Program-made: the position numbers and the translations under genes
Origin: Allacma fusca
Taxonomy: Eukaryota > Arthropoda > Collembola > Symphypleona > Sminthuridae
Assembly: GCA_947179485.1 (NCBI GenBank)
Contig: OX359249.1
Location: 35,884,250 to 35,948,249 of the forward strand
Length of the DNA: 64,000 nt
Direction: 5' to 3'
In this document: positions 39,749-63,806 of the stretch, one piece after another
Layout: the number at the start of each line of letters is the position of its first letter
How positions within the stretch are numbered: position 1 is the first letter of the stretch
Notes under the pieces: generated by a model
The model's database searches: none
What the model saw: the letters and a program-made list of their open reading frames with translations, nothing else
What the model was told of the DNA's origin: nothing

Positions 39749-41758
39749 CTACACCAACTCAGTTGTTGATGTGGTACTCCCGCGTATGTCATAATCAATA
39801 TCAACAGCCTGCGATTCTTGGAATTTCTTTAATTCCTCCACCAGCTGTGGATTAATCGGTTGTTTCTTAGTTACTTCTATGAACTCAAGCATTTCATCCT
39901 CAAAATGCTGGAGAAATAACTGGGAGAACTTGGGGTACTTCTCATTGATGCTCCCATCCACGGCTATTGTAACTTTCAGCTTCCCACAGTAGCTGAGGAT
40001 CCCAATGCTGACACCCGTGCGGCACTGGGTCGGAGAGAAGAGAACCAAATTGCTGACATTCTGTCCACCGAATAAACTCAGAGGATTTGTAGGCCCAGGG
40101 AGATTTGATAATGTCACGGTAGATCTGGAAGTGAGAGCGAGATTAAGTCGGGCTAAAGGTGTGATTAAGGATCCGACCAGACTTGTCAGTAAGCGCCGAA
40201 CTCCAGTGTCATGTTTCGATGTAGCCGTGCGACTGTTTTTGTCATTTATCTTTAGTCTCCTTTGCCTATTCCGGAGGAATCTCGTGGGAAGTGGAAGAAC
40301 AGCCAGAGAGAAATTATTTATAGGTTCCATAGTTTTGTACGGGAATTGAGCATAAGGCACTGTTGCGAGGACCTCATATGGAACTTCCGTGTTCGTAATG
40401 GTAAAGCACCGCTGGAAGGCTTTAGTCGCACAAGAGAGGATGACGGCCGTGAAGAGAACCGGCTTCCCACTCTTGTGTCGAATGGACTTGATTGCATCGA
40501 TAGGAATATCCTTATCCGTCCACTGACATATCTTTGATCCTTTGGCAAACGGTCCGTGAAAATTGTTCCTCTCTTTCAGCATCTTGGTCACTAGTGAGGC
40601 AAAGGAGTGGGGGAGGGACACCAGGTACCGCAGATGCTGGATGAAGCCAGGCATCTCCACTTGTGACTTGACAGAGGCGAGGGAATTCCTGGGAGTCTTT
40701 AAAGGATCCATTGGGAGCTCCACAGGTTCATCAGCTAGGCAATGCCGGAACATTTGTAACCACGAGAATCCATCTCCGTAGGAATGATGAATGCAAAAAA
40801 TAAGACCATAATCGCTACTCCGAGATGCGTTTCCTCCAATTGGGGCAATTATCCTGAATTCCCATTGTGGTTTCAGAGAGTCTAACTTGTACTCCAGGTA
40901 TGCTTCACACAAAGCTTGGATCCTGTCGTTTACATTGGTTCCTACATCCATAACCCTCTCCATGAAGAAGTGATTCCGAACGCTGAAGGCCTTATCTTTC
41001 TCCCAACAGTACAGAAGGAGTTTTTTCCGTACGATCCATTTTAACTTCTCGTATGGAACGTACATCTCAAAGATACCATCTTCGTTATCATTTGCACGCT
41101 CCAGTGTTCGGAACTTCAACACTTTCCTCTCAAAATCATCAACGATCCTGTCAAAATCCGGAGTTCCTTGACATTTCATCACAAATACAATATTTGAACT
41201 TGCGCTTTTCGACTCATTGCCCCAGAGAGCATCTTCGGGTCTCCTGATGAGTTTCACTTTGGACCCGTACACACAGCGCAAGAGGACTTTTGCCAGCTGA
41301 CGGTAAACTATGCTTATAAAGTAAAAGATTACTGTGAGGAAGAAGAAGAATAGGGAAGCGAGATATAAAACAATGTTTGAGAGGACCTCGGAAATGCTGA
41401 AACTACGACTGACGTCGTTGGGTATCTTGACTATCGTGTGCTTAGACTTGGTGGTGACTTCACAGGCAGACTCAACTTTATCTTGAGCTTCTATTGAAGC
41501 ATAAATGTTTTCCTTCACGATCAAGTGATGATGATGCTTGAGCTCTGGATCCTTGTAGATATTCTCGCACTTAGATGGTCTCTGCTGAAATCCTGTTTTA
41601 GGGGGGAGGTCATCCCAGGCTTTAAATTTTTCGGAATCGAAACCCAATGGAGTGAATTTAGTGGAAGTAACTACTCGATTCATGGCCTCTTGGCTCAGCG
41701 GAGAGTCACTCTGGACGTTCTTAGTTCCGAGAATCGCGGAGGCAATGACGGGTAACAT
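39749..41758 (-). CDS. WS/DGAT-like O-acyltransferase (wax ester synthase / diacylglycerol acyltransferase family)
   Basis: A single uninterrupted frame of 669 codons. I start it at the ATG encoding MLPVIASAIL, because upstream in-frame codons include no ATG before a TAG stop. Numbering from that Met: a variable, His-rich N-terminal region; one hydrophobic helix at about 126-152 (LSNIVLYLASLFFFFLTVIF); the acyltransferase signature HHSYGDG at about 324-330, matching the HHxxxDG active-site motif; and SNLPGPTNPLSLFGG from about 551, the conserved N-[VL]-PGP region of the WSD C-terminal domain. Enzymes of this family join fatty acyl-CoA to a fatty alcohol or diacylglycerol at a membrane, giving wax esters or triacylglycerol. 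Storage as wax ester is characteristic of many marine copepods. The catalytic residues look intact, so the enzyme should be active; which acceptor it uses cannot be read from sequence. No intron is evident, in contrast to its neighbours. Confidence 0.9.
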   Translation of the reverse strand: MLPVIASAILGTKNVQSDSPLSQEAMNRVVTSTKFTPLGFDSEKFKAWDDLPPKTGFQQRPSKCENIYKDPELKHHHHLIVKENIYASIEAQDKVESACEVTTKSKHTIVKIPNDVSRSFSISEVLSNIVLYLASLFFFFLTVIFYFISIVYRQLAKVLLRCVYGSKVKLIRRPEDALWGNESKSASSNIVFVMKCQGTPDFDRIVDDFERKVLKFRTLERANDNEDGIFEMYVPYEKLKWIVRKKLLLYCWEKDKAFSVRNHFFMERVMDVGTNVNDRIQALCEAYLEYKLDSLKPQWEFRIIAPIGGNASRSSDYGLIFCIHHSYGDGFSWLQMFRHCLADEPVELPMDPLKTPRNSLASVKSQVEMPGFIQHLRYLVSLPHSFASLVTKMLKERNNFHGPFAKGSKICQWTDKDIPIDAIKSIRHKSGKPVLFTAVILSCATKAFQRCFTITNTEVPYEVLATVPYAQFPYKTMEPINNFSLAVLPLPTRFLRNRQRRLKINDKNSRTATSKHDTGVRRLLTSLVGSLITPLARLNLALTSRSTVTLSNLPGPTNPLSLFGGQNVSNLVLFSPTQCRTGVSIGILSYCGKLKVTIAVDGSINEKYPKFSQLFLQHFEDEMLEFIEVTKKQPINPQLVEELKKFQESQAVDIDYDIRGSTTSTTELV

Positions 41759-43661
41759 TTTTGGAATTTTCACGTTTTCTTCTTGTATTCTCTACACGAA
41801 ACACTACATTTTATGTAGGATACGCTCTGTCACAAAATACGGGATTAATCTTGCCTTAAAAGAAAATCCATTAAGAATTGCTGCACAATGTGGTTCTCGG
41901 ATCTCCCCACCTCCGCTTTTGTCATTGTCACTTTGGGATGCAAACTGTAGAAAAGAGAGCTAAACCTGATCCTAGTAGAACGTTGGAGGGAGTAATCCAT
42001 GGAAGAGACAAAAATGTCTGTATGACAGACACAGCTCTCCGCTTGGAAATGAAGGTGAGATTGTTTCCGCCAGCAAAAATTATTGCAGTTTCCCTTTCGT
42101 AACCATTACTTTATGGTAAGAGTGAGTGAAACCAGCAGAGCCTAAAGTTGCAGTAATATATGAATTTTGTAATGCCCTGCTTAACGTCAGACTGCACCAC
42201 ATCTTATTACTCCTTCCAACTTACAATAGTACTACAGATTTTCTACTCAACTTGGTTTTTCTGAGGATTAGCTAATTGTAAGTACAGTATTGGAGTAACC
42301 GGCCCGTCGTAAAGTCTCGCAATCAAAATGCTAATCTCATGTGTACCAAGTACAGCCAATGCATCTCTATCAAGATTTCAAGATGCTGTATCTCAAGATA
42401 AATAACAACTTCTTTAAGAGCTACTTTGAGAGTAGACTGTATAGCCAACAGATTACAAAATAATTTCCATTTTTCAAGCTTGCTTCAGCCTCCTACTCAC
42501 TGGGACTTCTTTATTCAAATTTCAATGGTTTACTTCGATCTCGTTAGTATCAGGTAAATTTTACTTGTCAGATTCCATGTAACTACATACATACATACAT
42601 ATCTACATAAGTTACGTTTTGAGTCCATGTCCGAGGCTCATGAAAAATACAAGGGACCATGCCCCTTAACAACCGCTAAGAAACCAATTGAGGCCAAGGC
42701 ATTTATTATAAGCTGCTTCGAATTCTTGACCCCACCATCCCATCCCTGAAACCTTTTTCTGGTGATGCAAATCGTAATGGCACGTTAGGTGTAATTATTA
42801 TGTAACCTATAATTCTACAACGCCTTTATGGGGTAGACGACGTAGGTACCCAAATCAGTCTGCATTATTTAGAATCACTTTTTCGTCACTTCCTTTACAT
42901 TTCACGCGTCCGAGCGCGATTGAGAGTCTCACGTCATAATCATTTCACGCGGGGGTTCACATTTGAGCGTGCGTTTAGGATTTACCGATTCTTGAAAAAT
43001 TATTATTACTTTCATTTCCAATTTGAAACTTTTTCAACTTTTGTAGGAGGGAAATTGAAATTAAATCCCTAAATGAACTTGGAAAGTGAATATTTAGGTT
43101 TAGGTGTTTGGATGAATGAAACATGTGCGAAGATGAAGTGGTATTGAAATTAAAAGTTTATACTTTAAAACAAGGCATTGACGCATGTACACGCAAATTT
43201 ATTTATTATGCACATGCTATGTATGCTAACTACAAGGAACTGATTTTTAATGTTACTTGGAAATGCATAACTAATCATAGCCAGTGCCCTTTTAAAATCA
43301 TAAATCAAGTATTACAATGCAAAGAGTGATCGTAAAACTTATGTAATATCCGTGTGTGTCAGTTATGCAAATGGAAAATAAATGCTTTGTTCAATCCTAA
43401 AGTACAGGAGGTAGAGAGGCTAAGGGAAAATATGACATGGGGCTTATATCAAGCCCAAAATACTACTATACCCCGTATGCACATCAATAAAAATCCAATA
43501 TTCTTTTCTAAAATGGAATATATCCCTAAGCCATACTATGGAGGTTGAAGGTTTGCTTGCTATAGTAAAGACTCCCTTGAGTTTGAACATGTGGGCAGAT
43601 AGTTAATCAAGGAATTTTGTGAAATTCTTATCTTTATTGACACAAGTGTTAAAAAAAAAAG
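41759..43661. other. Intergenic region, probably upstream DNA of the acyltransferase gene
   Basis: No convincing gene. Short plus-strand open frames at 43123-43329 and 43354-43548 have mixed composition but no recognisable domain or flanking splice sites. The acyltransferase promoter should lie just above 41758; no clear TATA box was identified. Confidence 0.4.
43633..43638 (-). terminator. AATAAA polyadenylation signal
   Basis: On the minus strand AATAAA lies about 24 bases beyond the stop codon of the cysteine-rich protein gene, the usual distance for 3' end cleavage shortly after. Confidence 0.6.
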
Positions 43662-54807: not shown

Positions 54808-55568
54808 CTGGAAAGAATTAACAACAGATCCCACCAGGTTCCGATTACTGATATCGCCAATCAAGTCACGCTGACGGAACGTATCCACTCAATAGACTCA
54901 TTCATTCTGCTCAATTCATTCCAAGAGTTTTTGATAATCTGAAAATCCCTCTTGTAGTACAGTAGTGGATGCTGGAAATTCAGTAGATTTCCATAATTTA
55001 AATACGAATAGGAAAATTATTATTTCTTGTTGTTCGGACCGTATGTGAGGTCTGAGCTAATAAAAAAGGACGAAGTAGATACACAATTATTATAAGTAAG
55101 TAAGCTAGCTACACGAGTACTAACAAAATCCTGCATTCATATTTCATGAGAAAATGTCACTCATAAGTCCTCGTTCCATGTCAAATAATTTTGCGGCCAA
55201 GTACATCAGAAATGAGATTGATGAAGTAGTAACGACTGATAGGCTGCCAGGGAAGCGGTGGAGTGACAAATGAAAATAATCCAAGAGAGTATTACCCACC
55301 ATTATCAACGGAACATACTCTACTGTACACAATGAGACTAGACTCACTTTGTAAATTAAAAATCCATCAGGAGAAAAGCCTGTAGTCAGGTCCTGTACAA
55401 ACTCTGTCAACTGCTTCATTCTGTTGAGTAGTGTATCTATTTAAGCCCATCCATGTTAAAACGCCCCATGCTGTAGGTATAGGTGACCTTGTTTGTGTGA
55501 CCTCTCTGGGTATATGTATGATGTATATATATGTAGATATATACATACATAAATTGTATATATGGAAT
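54808..55568. other. Flank between the claudin-like gene and the viral element
   Basis: No convincing exon. A minus-strand frame at 55144-55419 begins with ATG and contains an internal AAA|GTGAGT, but its phase and content do not fit the missing first exon of the claudin-like gene. A TA/TG-rich microsatellite (ATGTATATATATG type) at about 55509-55560 directly precedes the element's A-rich repeats. Confidence 0.45.
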
Positions 55569-55569
55569 A

Positions 55570-55652
55570 CAAAAAAAAACAAGTGCAGGTAAAAAAACAA
55601 GTGCAGTAAAAAAAAAAACAAGTGCAGCTAAAAAACAAAATAACAAGTGCAG
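55570..55652 (+). repeat. A-rich ACAAGTGCAG short direct repeats
   Basis: ACAAGTGCAG occurs at 55579, 55597, 55618 and 55643, each preceded by an A-rich spacer of 7-15 bases. A fifth, ATAAGTGCAG, is at 55786 and a sixth at about 56308. This fits terminal or subterminal repeats at the left end of the element. Confidence 0.75.
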
Positions 55653-55662
55653 CAATAAAAAA

Positions 55663-55785
55663 ATGTCCAAGTGTGCTGTTGTGGCTGCAAAGGTTCTATG
55701 CGTGAAGAAGGTAAACGCAAAGAATGTATACTGTCAGGTACCCTTCGGAAAAAGAAAATATTTGGAAGTGCATATAAAAATATAA
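55663..55785 (+). CDS. Small basic ORF at head of the minisatellite
   Basis: ATG to TAA gives 40 codons, Lys-rich, with VKKVNAKNVYCQVPFGKRK near the centre. It overlaps the first copy of the 97-bp repeat. Later copies lack the ATG and, since 97 is not a multiple of three, shift the frame with each unit. It might be a small basic viral protein or only an accident of the repeat. No family is recognised. Confidence 0.25.
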   Translation: MSKCAVVAAKVLCVKKVNAKNVYCQVPFGKRKYLEVHIKI

Positions 55786-56347
55786 GTGCAGCAATAAAAA
55801 AGGTTCAAGTTTGCTGTTGTGGCTGCAACGGTTCTATACGTAAAGAAGGTAAACGCTAAGAATGTATACTGTCAGGTACCCTTCGGAAAGAGGAAAAAGG
55901 TTCAAGTGTGCTGTTGTGGCTGCAAAGGTTCTATGTGTAAAGAAGGTAAACGCTAAGAATGTATACGGTCAGGTACCCTTCGGAAAGAGAAAAAAGGTTC
56001 AAGTTTGCTGTTGTGGCTGCAACGGTTCTATACGTAAAGAAGGTAAACGCTAAGAATGTATACTGTCAGGTACCCTTCGGAAAGAGGAAAAAGGTTCAAG
56101 TGTGCTGTTGTGGCTGCAAAGGTTCTATGTGTAAAGAAGGTAAACGCTAAGAATGTATACGGTCAGGTACCCTTCGGAAAGAGAAAAAAGGTTCAAGTTT
56201 GCTGTTGTGGCTGCAACGGTTCTATACGTAAAGAAGGTAAACGCTAAGAATGTATACGGTCAGGTACCCTTCGGAAAGAGAAAATATTTAGAAGTGTATA
56301 TAAAATATAAGTGCAGCAATAAATAAAAAAGGCTTCCAAGTGTGCTG
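55669..56347 (+). repeat. 97-bp minisatellite with 194-bp higher-order unit
   Basis: The anchor AAGT[GT]TGCTGTTGTGGCTGC starts at 55669, 55807, 55904, 56001, 56098 and 56195; a partial copy (AAGTGTGCTGT) is at 56338. The inner spacing is exactly 97. Units alternate between a CAACGGTTCTATACG type (55807, 56001, 56195) and a CAAAGGTTCTATGTG type (55904, 56098), so 55807-56000 and 56001-56194 are near-identical 194-bp duplicates. The outermost copies are spaced 138 and 143 bases away and share AAATATTT[GA]GAAGTG sequence. Recent unequal exchange or replication slippage is the likely origin. Confidence 0.93.
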
Positions 56348-56652: not shown

Positions 56653-59600
56653 ATGGCTAATAATCAAGCCGGGCAATCAAGTAGCAGGGGTGGAAATTCT
56701 ATTAGAGTCCCGCTTCCCAATGAGTTTTTGGAAGCTGTGGACGGGGTCAACGTGCTAGTGAAGAAGTTTGTTTGCATTTGCAAACAGGGGTTTAATTTTC
56801 TTCGAGATCTCCGAGACCACTTTGCCCAGGACAAGGAATGTCAAAATAAACATTTGGATTCCAAGCAGTGGCCTAAGAAAAACATGAGTTTTTTTCCACC
56901 AAAATTCTTGTGTAAGTGCAATACTGCGATCTTCAAACTTGATGACTTAACCAAGCATTTCAGAGAGAAATGCCATGAAAATATAGTCAGAGAGAGTTAC
57001 CTCACTGAAAAGAGGGCACGGGTGGCGGCAATCAGAGCTTTTGAGGAGGCCAAACGGAGGGAAGAAGCTGAGGCCAAGCGGGAGATGCGGAAGCGGACTG
57101 CTCCAACAACTGTTGTCATTCCCCGTAAAAAAAGACGTATGTGTAGCAGTAATAATTTACTTGTTTTTAAAGTTTAAGTTTACTTATACGTGAGAAAGTA
57201 TGTTAAAAATTATGTGAATAAAGTAACTGAATGAATTTTAAACGATATTATTTTATTATTTTCAGATTTGGATGGTATGGACACTGACGATGAAGAGGAC
57301 CTGTGGGAAGCTGCCCGCGTTGCAGAAATAATGGAAGAATTGGCCAAAGTACCAACCCAACCTCCCCCCACTCTAGCTCCTGCTCAGGCACTCATCCCGG
57401 AGGGTATTCATGAGGACGAAGGTAATTTTTTTAAATGGTCTAAAAACACTGTTTACGCTTTAAAAACACTATTTGCAAAAAAAATTTACCGAGTGCAAAT
57501 TTCAATTTGCGAAAGACTCTTTTTTTTTTTTTTTTTTTTTTTTAGTTGAATACTAATTGTTTTGATTGTATTTGCAGATCCTTTCGAAGGACTCAGCCTT
57601 GCTGATCTCCATTTCTGCCCCAACGATGCCTGCAGTGTGGATGATCTGTGTGATAACTGCACGGAGATGCAGACGCAGGAAGTTCTGGCAGCTGAACCCC
57701 CGCCGGTAGATGTTCAGCCTGGAGCTGGGGATAATCACGACGCCCAGCAGTGGGTGCACAACGCTCCGGACTCTCAACTTCTTCCCCTGGTATCGACTCA
57801 AGCCATGAACGAATTAATTGAAGTCCTGGACTTAAATCAAGAGCAACATCGTCATCAAGACAATACCCCACAACAAGGTCCTTCCAAATCTTATAAGTGC
57901 CCTTATTGTGCGTGTTATTTCTATACTATGTCCCTATGTAATGCTCATAAAAAAATTCATGAGGCTAAAAATTACAGATGCAATCAGTGTAGTATAACGT
58001 TTAGGGATAGAAAGGTTTATGATGAACATATTAAGATTCATGATATTGAAATTATTGATCAAGTGGTGAAGGATGTTATTAACAGTAGGAATGTACATGA
58101 AAAGGTGCGCAAGAAGCGCAATTATGTTAAAAAGACTAATAAATTCTCATTTAAACTGTATTCAACTAGCTCTAACATATCTAATAATTTAAAATCATAC
58201 AGAGTAGATTTGAGTGATATATCCCATGCTACCGATATACGTGGTTTAATGCAGTCTGTTAAACCGCAGTTAGCTGACCAGATTCAAAAGGATTTAAATT
58301 TGTTTACAAATATTAAAATTATCGTCCATATAAATTGTATATTCGAAAAATTAGATAGTGAGGGTAGCGCCCAAAGAATTGTAAAATGGATGTCATCCTT
58401 ATCGCATGTCATTCTCCATGAAAGTAACATAGACACTACAATAGAATCTATTACACAAAAATTAGTGTTAATGATAGAAGACTTTTGCGAAAACGGCTCT
58501 GGTTTAGTATTAGTTGACATCCCCATCTTTGATATGGTAATTTCCAAGTATCAACCCCTGCGGGGTGGTACATATGCAAAACTCCCGTACTTACTTCAAA
58601 GTACAGTAGATATTAATAAGAAATGTTTATTTGTAAATGTAAATAATAGTGCTCAAGCTTATAATGTAGAAAAATTAACAGTTAGCCAACAACACTACAA
58701 AAGTGACAGGGACTTAGACTCTTGTTTTCTTTTTTCTATAGCAGCAGGTATACGCAATCTAAGTCATGAGCAAATGCACCGGTATAGACATATTATCAGT
58801 CAGTTAGACCTTACAGGCATTCACATGCCTATGACGTTGGAGCAGGTACCTAGGTTTGAGAGACAGAACCCTTTTATTTCTGTCAACATTTTTGGGTTCA
58901 GAGACACAGGCGTAACCTCAGAACATAGGAATTTAAAAAATCTTAGTCCTAGAGAGCAAAGTATTAGGCGGCGAAAAATGATACACTCAAATATATTTCC
59001 TTTGTATATAAGCAAGACCTGCAACCAAGCAGATGATAGGGATACTAGTAGGAAGCAGGATGCAGATAGGAAGCACAGGGTAACTATTGACAAAAGCAAG
59101 CATTACATTTTAGACTTGCTAATGATCATACAGAATGATGAGCAGGAAGAGAACATTATAGACCCCAGTCAGCCGATCCCTTCACGAGTTGACGACAGTG
59201 TCAACGAACATTTTGTATTATGCAGAGATCTGAATAGCTTATTCTGTAATCCGCAGATAAGAACTAGGGTTCATCTGTGCAGGTTTTGCTTACACTCATT
59301 TAGGTCAACGGACACTTTAAGCTCGCATATTGAAAGATGTTCTCAAATAGGGGCTCAGAAATCTGTTTTCAACTCTGACCCTGAAGCTAAAATTTGTTTT
59401 CAGGCTTATCAATATATGGTCCCAGCTCCTTATGTAATATATTTGGACTTTGAGTCCAAACTTGTACCGAAAGACCCGACGACTGCAAATAGATATGGCA
59501 CAGTTCCGAATCCCCATACCTACCAATTTCAGTCAACTACTACTGCTGGGTCTAGGGAATATACAGAAGAGCACATACCATGCTCGTATTCATACATTTG

Positions 59601-62112
59601 TGTTGGACCCAACGGCGAGCTCCGTCACAAGAGCACATATCACATTCAAAGCGACGATGAGAATCTGATGGACGCATTTTTTGAGGACATAAATCCTTTC
59701 TCATCTGCTCTAATAGATGAAATGGAGCTTCGTCAGAAGCAGGCTTCTAGTAATAGACGGTATCCACCTGATATGTCTGGGTTTAGTAGGTATGTTTGTT
59801 ATTTTTGTGAGGGTCTCATTAATCCTGAGGGTGAGGACGGTGAACGGGGCGTAGAGCATCATGATCATTTTACTCACATGTACCTGGGGCAAGCTCATAG
59901 CAAATGTAATATTCAGGCTAGCTGGTGTAAACAGATTCCTGTAGTGGTTCATAATCTGTGCGGTTACGATAGTCATCCTATTGTAACCAATCTAGATCAT
60001 GAAACCATAGAGTCATGTAGCGTTATTCCACTCAGTTCCGAGAAATTCTTATCCATAGAAATTAATAAGAAACTAGTATTTATTGATAGTTTAAAATTTC
60101 TGAGTTGTTCATTAGATAAGCTTGCTGCAGTGTTAGGGGAGAAAGGGTCGGAAAAGTTTAGGCTTACCAAGGAGGTGTTTAGTCAGGATTATCCAAATAC
60201 GCTAGACCATCAGCATCTGCTTTTTAAGAAGGGTATATTTCCTTATGAAGCCATTACTTCTTTTGCTGACTTGGAAAAAAAGGAGCTACCCCCTATAGAG
60301 GCCTTTTATTCCAAATTAAAGAATGAGCATATTAGTCAAGCTGATTATCAGCATGCTCAGAGCGTTTGGGAAGCATTTGGGATAAAGGACATGGGTGACT
60401 ACTGCAATTTTTATTGTAAGTTAGATGTTACCCTGTTGGCGGATGTTTTTCAAAATTTCCGACATCTTTTCCTAACATCTTTCAACTTGGACCCTGCTCG
60501 CTTTTTTAGTTTGCCAATGATAAGTTGGCAGGCTGCATTAAAGCATAGCAAGGTCGAGTTGGATTACATTAGAGATAGCGACATGCATATATTTTTAGAG
60601 GCGGCTCTTAGGGGCGGTTACGCCGGGTCTGGCTCTAAAAGATATGCGGACGCTAACAATAAGTATGTCCCGGAAACATATGACCAATCCCGAGACTGTG
60701 AATATATTATGTACTGGGATGCTAATGCGTTGTATGCAAAGGCAATGGATTCGTATCTACCCACAAAAAAATTTGCTTGGGTCTCAGAGTCGGAAGTTAT
60801 GTACTTGTCCAGAGTTGAAAATATTTTGAACTTGCCAGACGACGGTCAGGAGGGCTACTTTTTTGAGGTAGACCTTTCTGTACCTGAGGACAAGCATGAA
60901 TATTTCAACGACTATCCACTGGCGCCGCGAAAACGATGCGTGGATATCAGTGAAATGGCTCTTCTCCAAGTCGAAATGCAAAGTCAGTTGAAACTAACTC
61001 ATGGTTCTATGAAAGTAGGAAAGCTAGTGGCAGATTTGCACCCAAAGAATAAATATGTTGTTCATTTTAGAGCCCTTAAAAAGTATATTGAATTAGGCAT
61101 GACGCTAGATAAGGTTCATAGAATTTTAAAATTTCACCAGTCAGATTGGTTAAGGTCCTTTATTGATTTATGCACCGAGCGTAGGAAGGTAGCAACATCT
61201 GAATTTGAGAAGGATTTCTATAAATACATTTGCAACAGTTGCTTTGGAAAATCGATTGAATCAGTTAGAAATAGAACTACGATTCATGTTTTAACTAAAA
61301 ATAAAAATTCAAATAGTAAGTACAGCGATAGAGTTTTGAACTTTTCTAGAAAGTCCTCTTTGAAGGACATAATTATGATAACTCCAAATGTTGCTTTATT
61401 TGTAATGTCTAAAAGTAGTGTGTACCTAAATAAACCTATTTACACGGGAATTTCTTGTCTAGATATTAGCAAAATTATTATGTATGATTTTTACTATAAC
61501 TATCTTAAAGCAAAATATAATAGTGATAACAACTGTAAAGTAAGCCTTATTGGTACAGACACAGATAGTTTAATGGTGAGCATAGAGAGCCCTAGCCATA
61601 ATTTGGATGTATATAAAGATATGATGGATGACCATCAGCTGTTTGACTTGTCTAATTTTAAGCCTTGTAGTAGTGTAAGTGCTGAGTGGGCCCCTTTTTA
61701 TGTGGAAACTAATAAAAAAGTTAGAGGTGTAATGAAGGATGTCTCTGCAGGGCATCCGATTAAGTCTTTTAGATTTTTAAAATGCAAAATGTATGCTTAC
61801 TTAACATGTGATGGTATAGTTGATAAGAAAGCAAAGGGTATTCCAAAATCGTATATTAAGAATCATGTTAGTTTTAATGATTATGATAGAGTATTAATAG
61901 AGTCAGCGGAATCTACTAAAGTTAAATATAGAAAAATATCGTCTGTAGGGCATAGGTTATATAATGTAAATGAGCAAAAACGGGGTCTAAATTCTTTTGA
62001 TAATAAAAGGTACCACAGTACTTTTAATTATAGCTTAGCGTATGGACATAAGAGTATTATAGATTATAATAACCTGGATGCTTTTTTAAGAACATGTGAA
62101 GATAATCCATGA
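56653..62112 (+). CDS. Protein-primed-type family B DNA polymerase of Polinton-like element (three exons)
   Basis: It copies the element's DNA; this family primes from a terminal protein. Exons 56653-57136, 57266-57421 and 57578-62112 join with matching phases (donors C|GTATGT and G|GTAATT; acceptors TTTTCAG and TTTGCAG) to give 1724 residues. In order: two C2HC-like fingers (about 41-63 and 87-108); a basic PRKKRR nuclear signal at 157-162; an acidic linker; a C4 cluster (CPNDACSVDDLCDNC); two C2H2 fingers (about 319-368); a DLDSCFLFSIAAG region near 592-604; a further finger CRFC...H...C near 781-801; exonuclease motifs YLDFES (835-840), HNLCGYDSH (1005-1013) and YCKLD (1159-1163); an EndoVII-like Cys/His cluster inside the exonuclease (about 954-991); polymerase motif A DANALYA (1261-1267), motif B NSCFGK, motif C DTDS (1541-1544); and KAKG (1631-1634). 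All catalytic residues seem intact. I start at ATG 56653 (AAAAAATGG). Introns in such genes are unusual. Intron 2 carries a 24-base poly(T). Confidence 0.9.
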
Positions 62113-62219: not shown

Positions 62220-62870
62220 ATGGACGCACCTACATTTGACTACACTCTGCATGCACCATTTAACTTTGTTATTTCGGGACCTACAATGAGCGGTAAATCG
62301 AATCTCACGAAGAGTATTATTTCTCGAAGGGATGAAATCATTTTTCCGAACATAGAGCATGTCGTGTATTGCTATGGTATTGATCAGCCCAACGAATTTG
62401 CTTCAATGAAGCAGCAATTTCCAGAGATTCAGTTTCATCATGGATTACCAAAGGAATATGGCGACGACATGCTAAACCCATATCTTTATATATTAGATGA
62501 CCTAATGGAGGAGGCTTCAAAGTCGAAAGATGTCATGCAAGCCTTTGTTAGAGGAAGCCATCATCGGAATTGTTCTATTATCTTCATAACGCAAAACTTT
62601 TTTCATGATGGACTTAGACCTTTAACAACCAATGCCAAGTACATTTGTTTATTCAAAAATCCAAGGGAAACACAAGTCGTGAATAAAATTGGAATGCAAA
62701 TGAACTGTGGGAAAAAGCACTCGCTCATGGAGGAAGCGTACAAGGAGTGCATTTCAGTTCCTCATGGATACCTTATGATTGATTGCAGTCAGACACAAAA
62801 TGATAATTATAGACTCAGAAGCAATGTATTTCCAGATCCGAATTGTATTGTATTTATTAATCAGAAATAA
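62220..62870 (+). CDS. Viral DNA-packaging ATPase (A32/FtsK-HerA type)
   Basis: 216 codons from the first in-frame ATG (TCATCATGG). It hydrolyses ATP to drive genome packaging into capsids in Polinton-like viruses and relatives. Visible motifs: Walker A GPTMSGKS at 20-27, Walker B YLYILDD at 88-94, GSHHRN at 112-117, the IFITQNFFHDG sensor region at about 121-131, then LFKNPRETQ and PHGYLMIDCSQ toward the C-terminus. This order and spacing match the compact ATPases of adintovirus/Polinton-type elements, and the length is normal for them. It lies 107 bases after the polymerase on the same strand, and 17 bases separate its end from the end of the convergent zinc-ribbon gene. No intron or break is seen. 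Codons are AT-rich like the polymerase. Confidence 0.9.
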   Translation: MDAPTFDYTLHAPFNFVISGPTMSGKSNLTKSIISRRDEIIFPNIEHVVYCYGIDQPNEFASMKQQFPEIQFHHGLPKEYGDDMLNPYLYILDDLMEEASKSKDVMQAFVRGSHHRNCSIIFITQNFFHDGLRPLTTNAKYICLFKNPRETQVVNKIGMQMNCGKKHSLMEEAYKECISVPHGYLMIDCSQTQNDNYRLRSNVFPDPNCIVFINQK

Positions 62871-62887: not shown

Positions 62888-63610
62888 TCAAAAATTAATA
62901 ATGTAATGCATAGCAATATCCTTGAAATCAGTCATCAGCATGGTTATGGTACTTTGATTTTGAGTTAGAGTAATTTGACTCTCGTCACACGATTTACATC
63001 CCCAATCAATTTGAGCAAACGTAGTCTTCGTAATGTCTTGCCTATCATATTCATCCTTGCATGCGGAGCAGAAGCTTGGCAAAGGTTTGGAATAAATCTT
63101 GTCAGATCGCAAAGCGCGCTTTTGCCTGATAGGAACATCAGTTCCCTTCATTTTTTGCATGATGCTTTTCACAACGGCAGCGTTCTTAACGGGTGCAGCT
63201 GGTTTCCGCTTATTGTATACCAACTTCTTGTTACATCCCAGCGAGGTAACTTCAGAAGTCATGGGGGGATTCTTGTCCCAGTCAAATGTTCCACAAACAT
63301 CCTGTCCAATTGAACTATCCGGTTCTCTAACAGAGTCCGCTACAACTTCTGTGAATTACAAAAATTAATTAATACCTCAACTTAAATATTATGCATGCTT
63401 CCGAACGAGGTACGAAGGAAGGGTGGGACGATGGGTAAGGTTTGGGATTTTTTCCCTCCCCCTCCTTTTTCGCCAAACCGTAACGGAAGCGCGGCGGCGG
63501 CGGCGGGGAGCAGGGGCGGGAGGTTATCAGTGGGGACGGGATTTTGTCCACTTACTATTAATGGTGTGTTCAATTTCCATCGCGGCCTTAACCAGCTGTG
63601 CTTGAGCCAT
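62888..63610 (-). CDS. Two-exon zinc-ribbon-like protein of the viral element, unknown function
   Basis: Minus strand. Exon 63556-63610 starts ATGGCTCAAGC (MAQAQLVKAAMEIEHTIN) and ends A|GTAAGT. Exon 62888-63348 follows acceptor TTTGTAATTCACAG, completes the Lys codon, and runs to TGA, giving 171 residues. The middle is Lys/Arg-rich (KKLVYNKRKPAAPVKNAAVV; RQKRALRSDKIYSKPL). Four cysteines at 112, 115, 136 and 139 (CSAC ... CKSC) form a CX2C-X20-CX2C zinc-ribbon-like pair. No family is recognised. A basic, zinc-binding protein next to the packaging ATPase could bind DNA, but that is inference. The 207-base intron contains an unusually G/C-rich (CGG)n-like block at 63488-63531, which is read through only by spurious frames. 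Confidence 0.72.
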
Positions 63611-63806
63611 TACTGCTGCTGTTAATGTGAGAAATGCTTGAAGTTCGCACGAATGAACAATGGTTATGGAGGTAAATCGATAGTAGGCAGTTAATGCCGA
63701 TTGTCAGAAAAAAGAAAAAAATTGAGATGATTATTTGAAAAGCCATGCGGGTGAGATGCGTTCAATGGTTGTCGCTAGAATGATTTAAGAAATGCGTCGA
63801 CTGCTG

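What the first reader, a model, noticed from the sequence alone, without database searches (positions are those of the whole stretch)
56653..62112. Polinton-type DNA polymerase gene interrupted by two spliceosomal introns
Exons 56653-57136, 57266-57421 and 57578-62112 join by GT-AG sites in matching phase. The first intron separates a two-finger, nuclear-signal N-terminus from an acidic linker; the second separates that linker from the catalytic body. Polymerase genes of Polintons and adintoviruses are, as far as I know, normally described as intronless or nearly so. Introns would mean nuclear transcription and splicing are built into the element's expression, or that a host copy has acquired introns.
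Basis: partly seen in the sequence, partly recalled or inferred. Interest (0 to 1): 0.8.

Follow-up and report, generated by a model that had tools for sequence, protein, structure and literature searches.

The report
Polinton polymerase gene with conserved introns
A virus-like jumping element in this animal genome carries its DNA polymerase gene split by two ordinary introns that are kept in dozens of copies and three diverged families, so it appears to depend on the host's splicing machinery, which such elements are usually said not to do.

Summary
In detail: exons 56653-57136, 57266-57421 and 57578-62112 join in phase 1 at GT-AG sites. The window alone cannot prove introns: both are multiples of 3, and equally good site pairs occur 0.09-0.36 times per kb elsewhere in it. 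The host genome decides. Exon 1 matches at 58 places; of 55 loci read, 50 gave boundaries, in three families (16, 11, 23). The introns sit at homologous sites in all three. Exon 2 is a multiple of 3 in 49 of 50 copies while introns vary freely; in 38 of 44 copies the three exons do not share a frame unless introns are removed. Exon 1 is constrained as protein between families. The carrier is a textbook Polinton: AG...CT ends, 6-bp target duplication in 5 of 6 copies, mostly 17.8-19.3 kb, rve integrase, A32-like ATPase. A second element gene (minus strand, 63610-62888) has its own conserved intron. A fourth family seems to keep intron 1 only. Papers whose passages I read call such elements intronless. 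No RNA was available. New variant of a known kind.

The parts
55427..56284 (+). Left end of the element (starts AGTAGTGTATCTATTTAAGC) and tandem repeats beside it (55571-56284); extent of the terminal inverted repeat not measured
   Evidence: The window and six other family-A copies start at the same base after different flanks; an eighth, L019, shares about 190 nt of the window's flank; inverted copy of the end 23.7 kb away and CTGTTG on both sides; tandem repeats
56653..57136 (+). Exon 1 of the PolB gene: 161 residues, two CxC-x12-H-x5/6-C finger-like motifs, basic RKKR end
   Evidence: Cys/His invariant in one representative each of families A-C; pN 0.34-0.39 against pS 0.79-0.88 between families
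57137..57265 (+). Intron 1, 129 nt, phase 1, GTATGT...TTTCAG
   Evidence: homologous boundaries measured in 50 of 55 loci read
57266..57421 (+). Exon 2: acidic linker, 156 nt, phase 1-1
57422..57577 (+). Intron 2, 156 nt, phase 1, GTAATT...TTGCAG, with T-tract and TACTAAT
   Evidence: measured in 45 of 55 loci
57488..57519 (+). Conserved palindromic core inside intron 2 (GCAAATT-TC-AATTTGC)
   Evidence: 40 hits in the whole genome, 38 exact, 0 for the reversed control; shared by families A and C
57578..62112 (+). Exon 3: N-terminal extension, two C2H2 fingers, exonuclease, Endonuclease-VII-like Cys/His motif, protein-primed-type PolB body, stop
   Evidence: domain names recalled and by homologues' Pfam labels, exon 3 itself has no Pfam match
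62220..62870 (+). A32-like packaging ATPase
   Evidence: Pfam Pox_A32 7.3e-5; 93-95% identical in families B and C
63556..63610 (-). Gene X exon 1 (18 codons + 1 nt)
63349..63555 (-). Gene X intron, 207 nt, phase 1, GTAAGT...ACAG, with a highly conserved core of about 85 nt
   Evidence: same intron in the window and in 9 of 10 loci fetched, families A, B and C
62888..63348 (-). Gene X exon 2 and stop (unknown function)

Best explanation
This is a recently active Polinton (Maverick/adinto-like element) whose replicative DNA polymerase is a three-exon gene. It is transcribed in the nucleus. Two phase-1 spliceosomal introns near the 5' end must be removed to link a small finger domain and basic tail (exon 1) and an acidic linker (exon 2) to the polymerase body (exon 3), giving a protein of about 1,724 residues. 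Without splicing, the window copy would give only a 174-residue finger protein. The introns belong to the element, are shared by families A, B and C by descent (or with an exchanged 5' module), and are copied along because the element replicates as DNA. Shown: exon structure, conservation, frame logic, element identity. Inferred: actual splicing, nuclear import by the basic tail, and what the fingers bind.
For: Same two introns in families A, B and C although exon-1 identity to A is only 47-52%; the donor-1 phase counted from the ATG is 1 in 38 of 40 loci. In 38 of 44 copies with both introns measured the exons are not all in one frame: A 10/14, B 11/11, C 17/19. Exon 2 is a multiple of 3 in 49 of 50 copies, with a 27-nt in-frame difference in B, while introns vary by any number. 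Exon 1 is constrained as protein between families, and its Cys/His ligands are invariant in the three representatives aligned. Composition and codon signal change at the splice sites. Catalytic motifs are intact. Twelve copies besides the window's share the 400-residue PolB core at 100% as the tool rounds it. Paired AG...CT ends and 6-bp duplications.
Against: No RNA data. Donor 1 of the window copy (GTATGT) is mediocre: 12% of window GT sites score as high; 10 of 15 family-A and 7 of 7 family-B loci have GTAAGT. Both introns are multiples of 3 in the window copy and five others. Two loci (L050, L059) give phase 0 at donor 1, with broken or shortened exon-1 matches. An in-frame ATG at 57667 in exon 3 could start a shorter polymerase. 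Within family A, exon-1 changes are 12 non-synonymous to 2 synonymous, about the neutral ratio. No relative of exon 1 was found in the protein collection. Five of 55 loci could not be measured. Whole-intron identity between families is near that of shuffled controls, with short shared stretches only.
Confidence: 0.9

Rival explanations
1. A single intronless frame has been broken by stops and AT-rich insertions in a decaying copy; there are no introns.
For: In the window copy both gaps are multiples of 3 and all exons share one frame.
Against: Other copies have gaps of any length with exon 2 intact, at homologous GT-AG sites in three families; 38 of 44 copies have no common frame. Terminal and PolB integrity argue against decay.
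Confidence: 0.03
2. Exons 1 and 2 form a separate upstream gene, and the polymerase starts inside exon 3 at 57667 or at another start.
For: In-frame ATG at 57667; relatives L014 and L015 have single-frame PolB genes of 1286 and 1313 residues.
Against: Exon 3 begins at the acceptor with a conserved D-P residue pair whose split codon needs exon 2's last base, in families A, B, C and L105. Exons 1 and 2 keep phase with it. In the family D loci shown the acidic linker is continuous with the body.
Confidence: 0.06
3. A host gene derived from a Polinton polymerase acquired introns (domestication).
For: Introns are typical of host genes.
Against: Dozens of dispersed copies, element ends, 6-bp duplications, neighbouring ATPase, integrase and candidate capsid genes.
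Confidence: 0.01

Closest known systems
Polintons / Mavericks / adintoviruses
   Same: Protein-primed-type PolB, rve integrase, A32-like ATPase, AG...CT ends, 6-bp duplication, mostly 17.8-19.3 kb. That AG...CT ends and a 6-bp duplication are typical of Polintons is recalled.
   Different: Polymerase gene has two conserved spliceosomal introns and gene X one. PMC10120064 (passages read) says endogenous viruses of this kind 'do not contain introns'; PMC8547959 (passages read) found none in Cafeteria virophage elements.
Human adenovirus E2B genes (pTP, DNA polymerase)
   Same: Related protein-primed replication (recalled); the pTP coordinates in PMC2397415 (table passage) are two joined pieces, a 9-nt first piece and the body. 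That table lists the DNA polymerase as one piece; that it too gets its start from a spliced leader exon is recalled.
   Different: There the extra exon adds a few residues. Here it adds a whole finger domain and an acidic linker, in an integrating element.
Ginger1 DNA transposons
   Same: Element-borne introns (1-4), nearly all GT-AG, in an integrase-type gene (PMC2836005, passages read)
   Different: Cut-and-paste transposase, no polymerase or capsid genes (recalled in part).
Endogenous giant-virus KDM4-like genes of Amoebidium
   Same: Virus-derived integrated genes that keep a multi-exon structure (PMC11244446, passages read)
   Different: Captured eukaryotic genes in giant viruses; the same passages say most genes of those insertions have few or no introns.
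Polinton-like viruses of cryptophytes and other protists with group I introns
   Same: Introns in a Polinton-like element (PMC12220804, passages read)
   Different: Self-splicing group I introns; where located, in a short gene upstream of the capsid gene.

Membership tests
Polinton/Maverick | Protein-primed-type family B DNA polymerase with intact catalytic motifs | tested here: met
   2079 homologues at E<=1e-3 (best 120 listed), best 875 bits; Exo (DFES), motif A (DANALY), B (NSCFGK), C (DTDS) aligned in A1 (motif names recalled); Pfam itself gave no match for exon 3
Polinton/Maverick | Retrovirus-like (rve) integrase | tested here: met
   Sister copy L074:1543-2475-, PF00665 2.5e-13; that part of the window copy was not fetched
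Polinton/Maverick | A32-like packaging ATPase | tested here: met
   Pox_A32 7.3e-5, 22.8 bits, at the curated cut-off
Polinton/Maverick | Terminal inverted repeats, AG...CT ends, 6-bp target duplication | tested here: met
   Inverted 22-nt ends; duplication exact in 5 of 6 copies, the sixth (L109) 3 of 6; full TIR length not measured
Polinton/Maverick | Jelly-roll capsid proteins | tested here: inconclusive
   ORFs of 444 and 499 residues in L075 look like capsid candidates by eye, but no Pfam match and no useful PDB match for the 444-residue ORF; no structure was predicted
Polinton/Maverick as described in papers read | Genes without introns | tested here: not met
   I treat this as a descriptive generalisation, not a defining trait.
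Spliceosomal intron | GT-AG ends, variable length, homologous position and phase, exon frame restored by removal | tested here: met
Spliceosomal intron | Spliced RNA observed | not testable with these tools
   no RNA data held
C2H2-type zinc finger (exon 1) | Ligand spacing and beta-beta-alpha fold | tested here: inconclusive
   Best AlphaFold model has pLDDT about 80-90 over two strand-strand-helix units, but the five models range from 50.8 to 80.7 in mean pLDDT; best PDB match CTCF fingers at E 0.45; Pfam below cut-off

The most novel reading that the evidence does not exclude
Splicing is a control gate for the element, as intron retention is for the P element (recalled). Spliced RNA gives the polymerase. 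Unspliced RNA gives a 174-residue finger protein, which could bind the ends and damp replication. The conserved cores in PolB intron 2 and in the gene X intron would be the cis-acting RNA elements that set the choice, and the fast-diverging finger exon would be under conflict with the host.
Probability: 0.2. Interest if true: 0.85.

Novelty: new variant of a known kind. Interest (0 to 1): 0.62.

Why it matters
One large survey of endogenous Polinton-like viruses called genes with a prokaryotic/virus gene finder because these elements are said to lack introns (PMC10120064, passage read). Here the start of the replicative polymerase and of a second gene would be missed or truncated that way. It shows a Polinton lineage tied to nuclear transcription and splicing, which bears on how Polintons relate to adenoviruses and how hosts could control them. 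It also gives dozens of natural copies with which intron constraint can be tested.

Tried and rejected
Exon 1 against the 120 best PolB homologues of 2079, against 5.8 billion proteins as one sequence and as a three-family alignment: nothing; those searches only consider proteins of about 88-282 residues that share short words, so a full-length three-exon relative would be missed. Single-sequence scans of viral and genome contigs: nothing. The alignment scans gave 13 contigs from bacterial or archaeal bins and 2 IMG/VR loci; only the two IMG/VR loci were read further. Rfam on the gene X intron: six hits, all far below their gathering scores, best E 0.0086 for a lncRNA at 15.6 against 50 bits. 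RNA fold of its core: z -1.5 on the sense strand and +1.0 on the other, so no structure claim. Introner-element idea for intron 2: rejected, since the core has 40 hits genome-wide, 39 of them beside an exon-1 match by my comparison of coordinates. Foldseek of exon 1: inconclusive. PDB search with the PolB alignment and with the 444-residue ORF: nothing useful. Families E and F (40-44% in the PolB core) were looked at but their 5' structure was not resolved. In family D the finger ORF with a strong phase-1 donor was found in 7 of 9 loci fetched (not in L092 or L096); a good acceptor is clear only in L097, weaker in-phase ones exist in L091, L093, L094 and L095, none convincing in L098, so D is suggestive. 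Of two further A-C-like loci fetched, L105 shows a two-finger exon and the intron-2 acceptor, L104 shows no exon 1. ATPase identities printed used a frame off by one and are replaced. First coordinates noted for the gene X intron are replaced. PolB core matches outnumber exon 1 matches (106, with 104 of 709 candidates scored, against 58), so some copies are truncated or belong to D-F.
Full report
What was claimed and whether it is there. The coordinates, the sites and the phases are right. Exon 1 (161 residues) has two finger-like motifs of the form CxC-x12-H-x5/6-C and a basic end. Exon 2 (51 residues) has 15 acidic and 2 basic residues. Exon 3 is a long open frame with two C2H2 fingers, an exonuclease region, an Endonuclease-VII-like Cys/His motif and the PolB body with motifs A, B and C intact. 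Base composition drops from 45% and 53% G+C in exons 1 and 2, and 44% in the first 500 nt of exon 3, to 21-23% in the introns. The codon signal disappears in the introns.

Why the window alone is not enough. In this copy both introns are multiples of three, so the whole gene lies in one absolute frame with in-frame stops. Donor-acceptor pairs of equal or better score occur 0.09-0.36 times per kb in the first 55 kb of the window, depending on intron and strand. A broken frame could look much like this.

The decisive test. The host genome (392.7 Mb, 91 contigs, unnamed) can be searched. Exon 1 matches at 58 places. I read 55 oriented loci including the window. Boundaries of intron 1 and exon 2 could be measured in 50: family A 16, B 11, C 23. 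The other five (L084-L088) were not measured; they lie at partial matches. The boundary anchors were written from these loci, so they would not by themselves find an intronless copy. Intron 1 is 125, 126 or 129 nt in A, 83 in B and 102-115 in C. Intron 2, measured in 45 loci, is 138-158, 233-247 and 147-181 nt. Exon 2 is 156 nt in A (155 in one copy), 240 or 213 in B (27-nt in-frame difference) and 129 in C. Counted from the ATG, donor 1 is in phase 1 in 38 of 40 loci; L050 and L059 give phase 0 and have broken or shortened exon-1 matches. Of 44 copies with both introns measured, 38 have exons that do not all share a frame unless the introns come out. Some of the length variation lies in T-runs, where assembly errors are possible, but the between-family differences do not depend on those. 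Between families, whole-intron identity is near shuffled controls, with short shared stretches: the 3' part of intron 1 in A and B, and a palindromic core of intron 2 in A and C.

Exon 1 is real coding sequence. Between families pN is 0.34-0.39 and pS 0.79-0.88, so synonymous sites are saturated and replacements are held back; the fingers' ligands are invariant in the three representatives aligned. Within family A two allele groups differ by 12 non-synonymous and 2 synonymous changes, roughly neutral, while 300 codons of exon 3 are nearly identical. That pattern suggests recombination between copies at the 5' end. The best AlphaFold model shows two strand-strand-helix units with pLDDT about 80-90, but the five models disagree in confidence and the structural match to known fingers is weak.

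What carries it. The window and six other family-A copies begin at the same base after different flanks; L019 shares about 190 nt of the window's flank. The 22-nt end occurs 38 times genome-wide (35 exact, 3 with one mismatch). I paired 28 of these as 14 inverted pairs: 11 span 17.8-19.3 kb, one 17.0 kb, one 28.3 kb, and the window copy 23.7 kb. The 6-bp target duplication is exact in 5 of 6 copies tested, the window copy included. The ATPase is in the window; an rve integrase and candidate capsid genes lie in sister copies. The capsid identity is not proven. Twelve copies besides the window's have a PolB core that the tool rounds to 100% identity, so spread was recent.

How it most likely works. 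The element must be transcribed in the nucleus and spliced to make its full polymerase. If splicing fails, the window copy yields a 174-residue finger protein. Import by the basic tail and DNA binding by the fingers are inferences. Because Polintons copy themselves as DNA, the introns are inherited.

Depth and spread. Family D (62-67% identity in the PolB core) has a one-finger exon 1 with a strong phase-1 donor after a basic stretch in 7 of 9 loci fetched. In the loci shown its acidic linker runs straight into the PolB body, so it seems to have intron 1 but not intron 2; the acceptor is clear in one locus only. Exon 1 has no relative within reach of the protein searches, and two IMG/VR relatives have single-frame polymerases. 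Between families A and C the ATPase and the 444-residue ORF are about 95% identical while exon 1 is 47% identical: the 5' part of the polymerase evolves fast or is exchanged as a module, so family identity in exon 1 should not be read as age.

A second spliced gene. On the minus strand, gene X (63610-62888) has an 18-codon first exon, a phase-1 intron of 207 nt and a second exon. The intron is present in the window and in the nine of ten fetched loci that matched (L065 gave no match), in families A, B and C. About 85 nt inside it show one or two differences between families (counted by eye) although the next exon is only 50-69% identical in protein. Its genome search scored 40 of 68 candidates; all 40 are 97-100% identical, and by my comparison of coordinates most lie at the expected distance from a PolB copy. 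None of those 40 is one of the family-B loci, so the list does not show B's copies.

Against print. PMC10120064 (passages) states that such endogenous viruses do not contain introns and predicts genes accordingly. PMC8547959 (passages) found none in Cafeteria elements. PMC12220804 (passages) reports group I introns only. PMC11244446 (passages) describes few or no introns in viral insertions of Amoebidium, with multi-exon KDM4-like genes as the exception. PMC2836005 (passages) reports introns in Ginger1 transposases. Ten library searches, nine of them on Polintons or their relatives, listed no report of spliceosomal introns in a Polinton polymerase that I recognised from titles, abstracts and the passages read. 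The founding Polinton and adintovirus papers are not held, and most subscription papers are missing, so absence from print is not shown. Adenovirus pTP is listed as two joined pieces in PMC2397415 (table passage), so spliced replication genes exist in a related virus family.

Verdict. The finding is real and its first interpretation holds. The introns belong to the element and are conserved. RNA proof is missing.

Noticed in passing
window 63349-63555 (-): Intron of gene X holds a core of about 85 nt nearly identical in three element families though the adjacent exon diverges to 50-69% protein identity; possibly a regulatory RNA or DNA element.
   Followed up: partly
window 57488-57519: Palindromic core in PolB intron 2, shared by families A and C, not seen in the B intron printed; 40 genome hits against 0 for the reversed control.
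   Followed up: partly
G000:C5:35939676-35963409 (window copy): Copy is 23.7 kb against about 19.1 kb in several sister copies, with a second copy of the gene X intron core 4.4 kb downstream: probably an internal duplication.
   Followed up: partly
L019 and window 55235-55426: L019 shares about 190 nt of the flank left of the window's element at 99.9% identity: insertion into the same repeat or a duplicated locus.
   Followed up: no
L075:4016-5572 (-): 518-residue ORF with a weak BIR (inhibitor-of-apoptosis) match, 4.4e-4, 21.2 bits against a cut-off of 22.9.
   Followed up: no
window 63588-63746 (-): Small hydrophobic ORF of 52 residues, similar in the three families by eye, overlapping the start of gene X in another frame.
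   Followed up: no
L074:2923-4923 (+): 666-residue Lys/Arg-rich ORF with long internal repeats.
   Followed up: no
L036-L040, L058, L063 exon 2: Family B exon 2 carries a variable 9-residue repeat (LPQDPVLEV-like); lengths differ by 27 nt between copies.
   Followed up: partly
window 39749-41791 (-): Uninterrupted 680-codon frame of a wax ester synthase/DGAT-like gene, presumably the host's.
   Followed up: no
P0003: Best-scoring PolB relative (42%) is filed as a Candidatus Delongbacteria protein on a 5.4-kb contig, and further relatives sit on short contigs of bacterial bins: probably eukaryotic contamination.
   Followed up: no
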